Of a stretch of DNA of 64,000 nt, positions 23,809 through 59,276 are shown piece by piece. Each line of letters opens with the position of its first letter. Positions within the stretch are counted from its first letter, which is position 1. The notes beneath the pieces are model-generated. The model saw only the letters and a program-made list of their open reading frames with translations. It searched no databases and had not been told where the DNA came from. The position numbers and the translations under genes are program-made. The DNA is from Utricularia gibba (taxonomy: Eukaryota; Streptophyta; Magnoliopsida; Lamiales; Lentibulariaceae), in contig NEEC01000015.1 of the NCBI GenBank assembly GCA_002189035.1, positions 62,001-126,000 of the forward strand, in the 5' to 3' direction.

Positions 23809-25428
23809 ATGTACGCATCAGATGCCGCCGGCGAGGAATTGGAGAGAACAGCTTTTCGAAAAGCTGAAAAGAAGTATAAACTTTATTATGACAATTCCAG
23901 AAGGTGTGGGCGTCCGTAATTTTTTTTGTACATGTATTCACGGCAAGAACGACTCACCCTTTTTCTGGTTTGATCAATTTCAGGAAGAAGGTACCAATGC
24001 CTGTTGACTTGTCTGAGGTTGTAGATTTTAAAGCAATTTTGGAGAATTATACTCGCAATGGTGAACTCCCGGGAGGGGTTTTATTGCTAAACTCAGGTTT
24101 TGATCGGCATGTCTTCTGCCTTGAAGACCGACCAGGTACGGAGGCTTTTTGCCGTATCTAAGGCGTTGGATCGGTGCGTTTTTGGGAATTAATTTTCTCT
24201 TTTAAATTTAGGTTTTTACTTTGTTCCTGGTGCATTAAGCGTTGAGGAGCAATGCCATTGGATAAAGGAGAGTCTGATAAGCTTTCCTCAGCCTCCCAAT
24301 CGAACAAACCATAATGCAATATATGGGCCTATAGAAGATTTGTTTACCTCAGCGACAACTGGGAAGGATTTAGTATTTGAAGAGAAAGCTCGAGATTGTG
24401 CTCATGTGGAGACTGATATTGGGCTAAGTTCTCCGGAGTGGAAAATTGTCGGTGATTTGGACGTTTCGAATGGGAAAGTTTTGCGAAAGTCTGCTTCTGT
24501 AATGCTGCGTAAGTTAAGATGGAGTACTCTTGGCTTGCAATTTGATTGGTCCAAGGTTTTTCTGGAATCCCTTTTAACTTGTTGCATTCTTGCTATCAAA
24601 TGACTTCGTTTTGTTCTGCCTTAATGATAAGTTGGCAACTGCGAGCACTTTATTTGGTTTTGTTTCATGTCGTCTTGAGTATTTAGCTTCCGTGTCAAAT
24701 AGAACATCCAGAAGTTGTTTTTTTCCATGCAGCGGAGTTATAATACTTCTCTCCCGCATAACAAGATACCTGATGCATTGTGCCTCCTGGCGCAAAGAAT
24801 GGCAGCACCTGCTATGCGACATGGTGATCAGTTCAAGCCCGAAGCTGCAATTGTGAATTACTTCGGACCAGGTTCATTTTGTTTCATGTAAATCTACCTT
24901 TTCTATTCTTTTGTATGGATGTTCTGATTTTCCATCTCTTCAGGTGATACACTTGGTGGTCACCTTGATGACATGGAAAAGGATTGGAGTAAACCTATTG
25001 TTAGCATGAGGTACGTTCTTGACTATAAAGAGTAATATGACCCCTGGTTGGTGTCTGATTCGTTGCGTGCGAATGATTTTCTTCGCTCAACAGTTTGGGC
25101 TGTAAAGCCATATTCCTTCTTGGTGGCAAGTCAAGGGTTTATCCACCGACTGCAATGTTCCTTCGATCTGGTGACATTGTACTCATGGCAGGGGAGGCGA
25201 GGGAATGCTTTCATGGTACTAATATTCTTTACCCTTCCCAGGATGCCTTTCAGTTGACAAAATGCTTGCAGGACTCATCTTTTTTGATATTTTGACAAAG
25301 ATGCATTCTTGACGGTTCTGACGCTGAATTCGTGCGCAGGTGTGCCTCGTATTTTTACGGATGAAGAACATGCCGAAATCACACATCTTAAATCACGGTT
25401 TGTGGAGAAGACGTTTGCCCTTTCTTAA
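23809..25428 (+). CDS. ALKBH1-type 2-oxoglutarate/Fe(II) dioxygenase, frameshifted 3' end
   Basis: Exons 23809-23903, 23984-24135, 24212-24555, 24733-24871, 24944-25010, 25094-25215 and 25340-25428 close in phase, giving 335 residues as read. The start MYASDAAGEELERTAFRKAE and the segments FPQPPNRTNHNAIYGP, LRKLRWSTLGLQFDWSK, GDTLGGHLDDME (iron ligands in HLD) and MAGEARECFHG (second His ligand) identify plant ALKBH1 (At1g11780 type). Relatives demethylate nucleic acids, including tRNA and 6mA DNA. The final exon meets TAA at 25426. The conserved tail YMRTSRININIRQVF, which carries the Arg residues that hold 2-oxoglutarate, follows at 25431-25478 in another frame. One missing base upstream explains it, most simply in the CCC at 25418-25420. 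As written, the protein would lack the co-substrate-binding motif. Confidence 0.9.
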
Positions 25429-25478
25429 ACTACATGCGGACATCCAGAATCAATATCAACATCAGGCAAGTTTTCTGA

Positions 25479-26910
25479 CCATTTTGCGTTGCACCTGAAC
25501 ATCATGCTGTGGTCACACATTGTTTATCTGGCAATCTGAAGACACATACAAGTTGAAACGATTTGTCAGTTGCCGGGTTCGAAGGCATTTGCACACATGC
25601 ATTTCGAAATCAAGCCCACCCAAAGCGCACTACTGACCCCGGATCCGCAAGGTGGTGAAAAGATCATCAAATGGCCCAGCTCCCGTATGCGCATGTTGGA
25701 ACCAGGCACCCATCATAACCAACATCGCCAATCTCCCGTTCTTGATCTCCTCGCGCGCTTGGGTATCCAACATTGATTCCGGTGAGGGGATTGCTCACTT
25801 GGGTATGTTGCAGTGCTGGATGATATCCGATCTGATCTTCGTTGCGGATGATGCAGTAATGGATCGAGAGAAAATGGGTGAAATCTGTCTCAAGAACACA
25901 CTTCGGACACTGTTAGAACACCTGGCAGTCTGGTTCACACCAAAATAAATTGACCCACAAGTCTAATAGCACCACGAAACACTTCAATCCCACACTGCGA
26001 AGCCGGAAGAAATGAAGCACCGCGGTAACAGATCCAGATGGGGTTAACCCGTAGTCCGCTCACCTCAAGAGTCACGCTCGATTGTATCTGCCACACCCAA
26101 TTCCACACACGGAGACTTGGAGTTGTCGGATACCTCCCAAAAAAACAAAAGCCAGAAAGTCCCCCGTTAGACGATTGGGCCGCCTTCAAGCTTGCTCACT
26201 AGTAACTGCATCATTCCCGCCAAGTGGAAAACCATTCCACCCCCAACGGCCGGAGGGAGTGGTAAGGGAACATATGGCGTAGATTGAAGACATCAGATGT
26301 GTGGAGGCCAGGAGATTGGCGAACTATAAGCATTAGAGTGAACCAGTTCAATCTGTCTGGATCGGATCCTGTTAACATTTCCCGATGGTCGAAATCGCCC
26401 GGAAGGCCACCGTGAAACCAAGCCGGCGAACTCCTAATAGCTCGGTCTGACTGGATTATGCGGAAGAATGGACGGCGAATTTTCCGATTCTGAGCTTTGT
26501 CGTTGGAAAGAAGACTTGGTTGCCCACATGGTTGAACTGCAACGAAAATGCAGTCAGAAGTTGGGGGTGAGCGAATAGATGGTGTTTTCGAATCCTCCCT
26601 CGGATGAATCCATCCCAAAAAGGAAAACGTTGTTTGGAACGTGAATTCACCGCCGCTTCGGACTCGCATGTGCGCCATGACTTGGTGCAATTTTGATCGG
26701 CCGGTTCACAGGCCCCCCGGCGCAGCGGATCTCAGACTATGATCTTATCGTCTTCAGGAAAATAGCAATGCAAATCTAATACAACGTTGGCAATAAGAGA
26801 TTGGGAACAAAAAACTCGTTTGATAGACGACAGAAGTCTTCTGAAACAAGACGATAACCCAGGAACACATCACATTAGAAGCTATTTGGCCTGAAGGAGG
26901 AAGATTATTT
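25479..26910. other. Intergenic region between ALKBH1 and RPSA
   Basis: Both genes end here, so it holds two 3' UTRs. A 159-codon open frame on the minus strand (26690-26211) shows no domain, no ATG-led homologous start and no match I recognise. I treat it as chance or an unrecognised relic. Confidence 0.5.
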
Positions 26911-57962: not shown

Positions 57963-58349
57963 GCTACTTAAAAAATCATCGTCTTGTCTAAGATGCATGA
58001 AAATTGCTGCCTTCTTTCCCTGTGGACGGACAGTGGATATACGCAATATGTAACAGTATATGTGAGTTGTGACACGACACAACGCTTGTCAAAATGCATC
58101 TTTGGGATTCGTTCCGTCAACAAATGAATCTGAATATGTGTGATTGAGATGAGGATAATTGCAATCCAATCCAAGGGGTTCCGGTTTCGCAGGAAACACC
58201 CACCAAGGTGCGGTGCGGACTCGACTCGAGTCGAATTGGGCCCCGGATTGGTGATTCTGGGATTTCCCACGAATTCCTGGCTCAGCGCTTTGAGATTCTA
58301 GTGCTAGGTTTTGGGGGATATTTGGTAGAAAGTTGCTTTTCTGAAGCAG
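57963..58349. other. Short intergenic region
   Basis: No gene is seen. A 14-base perfect palindrome (TCGACTCGAGTCGA) lies at 58221-58234. Confidence 0.5.
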
Positions 58350-59276
58350 ATGGACGGTATGGGCGATGAGGAGAATGACGCCGTGCTGAGCGATGTGGAG
58401 GGGGATGATCCATTGCCTGTTGACACCAAGCCGTGGAGAATATCTCTGAGGAGAAGTTCCGGAAACTTTTACTTGAACTGATCGTGAGAGATTAGCCCGT
58501 GGGGCTGCAGAGAGGGCAAAGAATGACCTCCAGGTGTCGATGAATCGTCTTAAAGCGCTGTGCCATGAGGCTATCAAGAAGAGGGATGAGTCCTTCCGGA
58601 AGCGTGCTGAATCGTCTTAGTTACTCAATTTGTTGTTTTCCTAGCAGATTGAAGGGCTTCTGACGGATATTTCTACCGCGGAGGAAGAAATAGCACGATG
58701 GAAGGTGGCAGCACAGCAGGAAGCTGAAGCAGGAAAAGCAGTTGAACAGCAATGTGCATCACAGGTATGCCAATATTTACTAGAAGTTGGTCGTACAGAT
58801 AGATGGATGTCCTGATTTCAGCTAGTGGTCTGGAGTCGCAGTGGTACTTATTCATGATCCAGAGATGTTCTGGGTAGCATTCTTCCTCAACATCTTGATT
58901 TGCTTCCAATTATGTGATCCAGTTGGCGTCAGTGCGCCAGGAGCTTGAAGAGGCTCGACAAGCTGTGATGGAGGCGGAGAAAAAGCTTGAGCTCAAGGAA
59001 CAAACGGCAGAAGCAGCGATGGCAGCAAGAGATGCAGCTGAGAAATCGTTGAGATTGGCTGATACCAGAGCTTCAAAACTTTGGGATCGAGTCGAGGTGC
59101 TTACTCGACATCTGGAAGAGCTGGATGCCCGCGAAACGTCGAGATCTGGAGCTGCTAGGCCGAGGTACGTCTGCTGGCCGTGGCAGTGGTTAGGCCTGAA
59201 CTTCTTAGGGCCACAGCGCCCCGACACTCCAAGGCAAACTGCCAACGAGATGGAGCTCTCTGAACCGTTTCTTTGA
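58350..59276 (+). pseudogene. Truncated, frameshifted copy of a long coiled-coil protein (At1g24560 type)
   Basis: The 5' piece starts MDGMGDEENDAVLSDVEGDD, continues in a second frame (VENISEEKFRKLLLEL) and then a third (RERLARGAAERAKNDLQVS, MNRLKALCHEAIKKRDES). The breaks are near 58431-58436 and 58480; each is one missing G. It then stops at 58616-58618. Two intact 3' exons follow: 58648-58764 (IEGLLTDISTAEEEIARWKV) and 58923-59276 (AAEKSLRLADTRASKLWDR, PRYVCWPWQWLGL, ending NEMELSEPFL). Full-length relatives are about 700 residues of coiled coil; more than 400 central residues are absent here. The tail stays open and well conserved, so a short transcript is possible. Even if both one-base breaks are read errors, the internal deletion remains. 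Confidence 0.75.

What the first reader, a model, noticed from the sequence alone, without database searches (positions are those of the whole stretch)
25396..58481. Recurrent one-base losses next to G/C runs in conserved exons
In four genes (ALKBH1, remorin, Ser/Pro/Arg-rich protein, coiled-coil gene) the conserved protein continues in another frame, and adding one base restores it each time; the fifth break is the second one in the coiled-coil gene. Each site is next to a G or C run: about 25418, 30236, 38316, 58433, 58480. A sixth possible case is EMB2421 exon 10. All are losses and all fit G or C. Independent mutation of unrelated, normally essential or conserved genes in one small region is less likely than systematic consensus under-calling of G/C runs. 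If real instead, the region is decaying.
Basis: partly seen in the sequence, partly recalled or inferred. Interest (0 to 1): 0.62.

Follow-up and report, generated by a model that had tools for sequence, protein, structure and literature searches.

The report
Missing bases from sequencing, not mutations
Several plant genes in this stretch look broken because one DNA letter is missing from short runs of identical letters, and the same fault recurs across the whole assembled genome, so most of these genes are probably intact in the living plant and the sequence file is wrong.

Summary
The five frame breaks are in the sequence and all are one-base losses. The sixth case (EMB2421 exon 10) is an ordinary 68-base intron. 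The claim that all losses fit G or C fails: the whole-genome-duplicate copy on contig C375 shows lost A (SPR gene), G and T (coiled-coil gene), and a decayed copy suggests T for ALKBH1.

The broader idea, consensus under-calling, holds assembly-wide. In P450, GRAS and HSP70 genes elsewhere I counted 21 one-base losses and no uncompensated one-base gain. Restored G/C runs of at least four are enriched in GRAS (8/12 against 0.217 expected, P=0.001). Codons after the GRAS breaks are still under strong selection (dN/dS 0.06-0.18). Most directly, two contigs covering one 9-kb locus differ by one substitution but four one-base losses, all in G/C runs, two of which cut a 341-aa frame.

So the window is not a special decaying region, with one exception: the coiled-coil gene also lost about 1.65 kb and is a true remnant with a full-length duplicate. 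Organism and technology (Utricularia gibba, PacBio/HGAP) are inferred, not shown.

The parts
25340..25474 (+). ALKBH1 last exon with a one-base loss; lost base probably T at about 25399-25401 (TTTT to TTT), not C at 25418; the RININIR stretch lies in the other frame
29688..30538 (-). Remorin exon with a one-base loss at about 30236-30240 (GGG on the coding strand); lost base not determined, G fits
35332..38643 (-). SPR-rich gene; one-base loss at 38313 in exon 2, lost base A by comparison with the C375 duplicate; other exons open
58350..58606 (+). Coiled-coil gene first exon, one-base losses at 58431 (G) and 58480 (T)
58607..58628 (+). Junction of a deletion of about 1.65 kb relative to the C375 duplicate; middle of the coiled-coil gene is missing
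58629..59279 (+). Remaining last two exons of the coiled-coil gene, open and conserved (dN/dS 0.34 and 0.13 against the duplicate)
34273..34340 (+).

Best explanation
Most of the apparent frame breaks are residual one-base deletions in the assembly's consensus. Noisy single-molecule reads drop a base inside a short run of identical letters, and an unpolished consensus keeps the shorter run. This happens throughout the assembly, most visibly at G/C runs but also at A and T, and the window carries about its share. ALKBH1, remorin and probably the SPR gene are intact in the plant. The coiled-coil copy is a real duplicate being lost (1.65-kb internal deletion); its two one-base losses may be real or errors. 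Shown: the losses, their assembly-wide recurrence, G/C-run enrichment in the GRAS sample, continued selection beyond the GRAS breaks, and disagreement between redundant contigs. Inferred: the read technology, and that each individual window site is an error.
For: Four of four truncated P450 matches read elsewhere are one-base losses beside G/C runs. Nine simple broken GRAS genes carry 12 losses and no gain; restored G/C runs of 4 or more possible in 8/12 against 0.217 in simulated deletions, P=0.001, A/T runs not enriched. Four HSP70 genes carry five losses. dN/dS after the GRAS breaks 0.06-0.18, as before them. C376 and C413 copies of one 9-kb locus: one substitution, four one-base losses in G/C runs of C413, two of which cut a 341-aa frame; C316 against C412: CCCC to CCC cuts a 615-aa GRAS frame to 412. 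HGAP plus Quiver left 561 one-base homopolymer deletions in a bacterial genome (PMC4888979). SPR dN/dS of 0.28-0.41 in its large exons resembles intact pairs.
Against: At the window sites with a duplicate the lost bases are A, G and T (and probably T), so the G/C excess seen elsewhere is not visible here. No redundant contig covers the window sites. The coiled-coil copy is genuinely damaged, so its breaks could be real. Reads were not available, and organism and technology are inferred.
Confidence: 0.87

Rival explanations
1. Real loss of duplicated genes after whole-genome duplication: the window copies are decaying and the frame breaks are true mutations.
For: The coiled-coil copy has lost about 1.65 kb while the C375 copy has a long open first exon; SPR also has a duplicate; duplicates of other genes are reduced to scraps.
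Against: All breaks are one-base losses with no gains; ALKBH1 has no other close copy and is otherwise open; constraint persists in SPR and in broken GRAS genes; redundant contigs show the same losses between versions of one locus.
Confidence: 0.09
2. The lineage has a truly high rate of one-base losses in short runs, so the breaks are real, recent and spread over the genome.
For: The losses are genome-wide and run-associated, which a replication-slippage bias would also give.
Against: Three GRAS genes would independently have lost one C in the same GGPP stretch, and essential cytosolic HSP70 copies would be broken; one substitution against four run losses between C376 and C413 is unlike ordinary variation.
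Confidence: 0.03
3. The reading frame is restored during expression, by splicing or programmed frameshifting.
For: True for EMB2421 exon 10, where an intron explains the break.
Against: At the five sites the two frames meet within a few codons of one exon, too close for an intron, and the sites share no shift sequence; the duplicates are simply in frame.
Confidence: 0.01

Closest known systems
Residual one-base homopolymer deletions in PacBio HGAP/Quiver consensus (PMC4888979)
   Same: Single-base losses in short homopolymers, nearly no gains, spread over the assembly, breaking frames of conserved genes; similar density (561 in a genome of about 3.2 Mb there, about 0.06-0.25 per kb of coding sequence here).
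   Different: Reads and assembly records are not available here, so the technology is inferred; A and T losses are also seen.
Loss of duplicate genes (fractionation) after whole-genome duplication
   Same: The coiled-coil copy lost coding sequence while its duplicate is long and open; the ALKBH1 duplicate survives only as scraps on C375.
   Different: Does not explain one-base losses in single-copy or strongly constrained genes.

Membership tests
Residual consensus deletions of noisy long-read assemblies | Losses strongly outnumber gains | tested here: met
   21 losses, 0 uncompensated one-base gains in the loci counted; complex or intron-bearing loci left out
Residual consensus deletions of noisy long-read assemblies | Lost base lies in a homopolymer run | tested here: met
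   GRAS G/C runs of 4 or more 8/12 against 0.217; C376/C413 four of four; window sites are runs of only 2-4
Residual consensus deletions of noisy long-read assemblies | G or C at every window site | tested here: not met
   A at 38313, T at 58480, probably T in ALKBH1
Residual consensus deletions of noisy long-read assemblies | Two consensus versions of one locus disagree by run length | tested here: met
   C376/C413 and C316/C412; not available for the window sites
Residual consensus deletions of noisy long-read assemblies | Accurate reads carry the longer run | not testable with these tools
   No reads available
Pseudogenes from duplicate loss | Relaxed selection in the broken copy | tested here: inconclusive
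   Pairwise dN/dS for the window genes 0.13-0.41 like intact pairs, one short exon 0.69; recent loss cannot be excluded
Pseudogenes from duplicate loss | Further damage in the same gene | tested here: met
   Coiled-coil gene only: about 1.65 kb missing; not seen in SPR or in the ALKBH1 exons read
Programmed frameshifting | Shared shift sequence kept in the duplicate | tested here: not met
   The five sites share no motif and the C375 duplicates are in frame

The most novel reading that the evidence does not exclude
The plant lineage truly suffers frequent one-base losses in short runs, so that a noticeable share of conserved genes carries fresh frameshifts in living plants, perhaps heterozygous or somatic.
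Probability: 0.03. Interest if true: 0.75.

Novelty: already known. Interest (0 to 1): 0.17.

Why it matters
A gene-loss or pseudogene claim made from this assembly without short-read polishing may be wrong: roughly one loss per 4-18 kb of coding sequence in the families sampled, with GRAS regulators and cytosolic HSP70 genes among those that look broken. The duplicate regions and redundant contigs offer a check from the assembly alone.

Tried and rejected
The regional-decay reading was rejected because the same breaks occur at similar rates on other contigs. I first read the P450 table as free of breaks; reading the truncated matches showed four. Run-length counts in the window show no clear depletion of long G/C runs, so that test is uninformative at this error rate. 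Picking the single best-scoring insertion against diverged references gave odd bases, so a tolerance with a simulated null was used instead. UDPGT gave mostly partial matches and was not used. BAHD genes showed likely breaks (e.g. C412:535.87 kb) that were fetched but not analysed. L040, L055, L056 and L082 (complex, deleted or intron-bearing) and low-scoring GRAS loci were left out of the counts; L040 holds a compensated loss/gain pair and a two-base loss, L055 a 16-aa deletion. No redundant contig covers the window sites. An older SPR paralogue on C2 did not reach the break in the stretch fetched. The PNAS paper on the assumed assembly is not held.

Full report
1. What was checked. The window is G000:C412:62001-126000 of a 100.09-Mb genome in 516 contigs; C412 is 2.57 Mb. 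The gene content is that of a flowering plant. Size and contig number resemble the published Utricularia gibba long-read assembly (HGAP, 88x, contig N50 3.4 Mb; PMC5793159), but no tool names the organism, so this is inference.

2. The five sites. In ALKBH1 the last exon reads HGVPRIFTDEEHAEITHLKSR in one frame and NYMRTSRININIRQ in another; the PF13532 match ends in the second frame. In remorin KWDDAQKWLVNMSR continues as DKNPPTKASPRNSSSDDRRLI in another frame. In SPR exon 2 [10 protein letters not shown] continues as [15 protein letters not shown] after a shift. The coiled-coil first exon shifts twice. In each case the two frames meet within one exon, so splicing cannot explain it.

3. The duplicate region. 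Window 35-64 kb, and parts of 17-29 kb, are collinear with C375:3.06-3.12 Mb at about 70-88 percent identity, as after a whole-genome duplication. In duplicated coding exons of 35-64 kb nearly all gaps are multiples of three or compensated; the exceptions are three one-base losses, all in the window copy: A at 38313, G at 58431, T at 58480. A decayed scrap of the ALKBH1 last exon has TTTT where the window has TTT at about 25400, and no extra C at 25418. The scrap is itself damaged, so this is a pointer, not proof. The G/C claim is therefore wrong for two sites and probably for a third.

4. The sixth case. EMB2421 exon 10 ends at a GTAACA donor (34273), and coding resumes after CTTCAG (34340). 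The spliced reading is open to the stop.

5. Is the region special? No. In PF00067 about 71 kb of matched coding sequence was tabulated and four truncated matches were read; all are one-base losses, at GGGGCCC, AAGGG, TGCCCGG and TTGGG. In PF03514 (48.5 kb) nine simple broken genes carry 12 losses and no gain under a frameshift-aware alignment. In PF00012 (27.4 kb) four genes carry five losses (the C241 copy of the C304 locus is not counted again). That is roughly 0.06, 0.25 and 0.18 per kb. These are lower bounds with unequal search effort, and the window's handful of losses is of the same order.

6. What bases are lost. Random single deletions simulated in intact GRAS genes and passed through the same pipeline allowed a restored G/C run of at least four in 21.7 percent of cases; the 12 observed losses allow it in eight (P=0.001). 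A/T runs are not enriched (two of 12 against 25.5 percent). Four score tolerances gave P from 0.00016 to 0.0012 for this run length. The 12 losses are not fully independent: three are in one gene, two in another.

7. Real or error? In eight GRAS comparisons codons after the breaks have dN/dS 0.06-0.18, as before the breaks. The downstream part was therefore read in frame for most of the time since duplication, which excludes old breaks. For recent ones, redundant contigs help: C376:14001-23000 and C413:5397857-5406856 differ by one substitution and four one-base gaps over 9 kb, all four being shorter G/C runs in C413; two of them cut a 341-aa frame. C316 against C412 shows the same kind of loss in a GRAS gene (CCCC to CCC, 615 to 412 aa), along with other small indels. 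A true allelic or duplicate difference cannot be fully excluded, but four run losses to one substitution is not the usual pattern of natural variation (general knowledge). PMC4888979 reports 561 such deletions after HGAP and Quiver in one bacterial genome.

8. The coiled-coil gene. Besides its two losses it lacks about 1.65 kb between 58606 and 58629, and its first exon runs into a stop; the C375 copy has a long first exon without a stop. I take this copy as a true remnant, damaged recently because its remaining exons still show dN/dS 0.13-0.34. Its two one-base losses may be real or errors.

9. Site by site (judgement): probability of error about 0.85 for ALKBH1 and remorin, 0.7 for SPR, 0.5 for the two coiled-coil sites.

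10. Conclusion. The phenomenon is a known artefact of unpolished long-read consensus.

Noticed in passing
window 17.5-64 kb against G000:C375:3060001-3120000: Collinear duplicate region from a whole-genome duplication, with some genes kept in two copies and others lost from one side.
   Followed up: partly
window 58606-58629: Internal deletion of about 1.65 kb in the coiled-coil gene relative to its full-length duplicate.
   Followed up: partly
window 25385-25749 and C375 about 3101450-3101981: Scraps of a decayed ALKBH1 duplicate and of the sequence after it; window ALKBH1 appears to be the only close copy.
   Followed up: partly
window 11601-11675 and 40019-40095: Two stretches of 75-77 bases identical to one stretch of C375 (about 3082304-3082381), probably tRNA genes.
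   Followed up: no
G000 contigs C241 (31 kb), C316 (38 kb), C376 (30 kb): Small contigs nearly identical to parts of large contigs C304, C412 and C413: redundant or allelic copies useful for error checks.
   Followed up: partly
G000 contigs C1, C2, C505, C507, C409: Contig lengths are round numbers (8,500,000; 6,192,500; 3,452,500; 642,500; 2,492,500), unexplained.
   Followed up: no
L046, L048, L051 (GRAS genes): Three GRAS genes share a one-base loss in the C-run of the same GGPP stretch, a good marker site for the artefact.
   Followed up: yes
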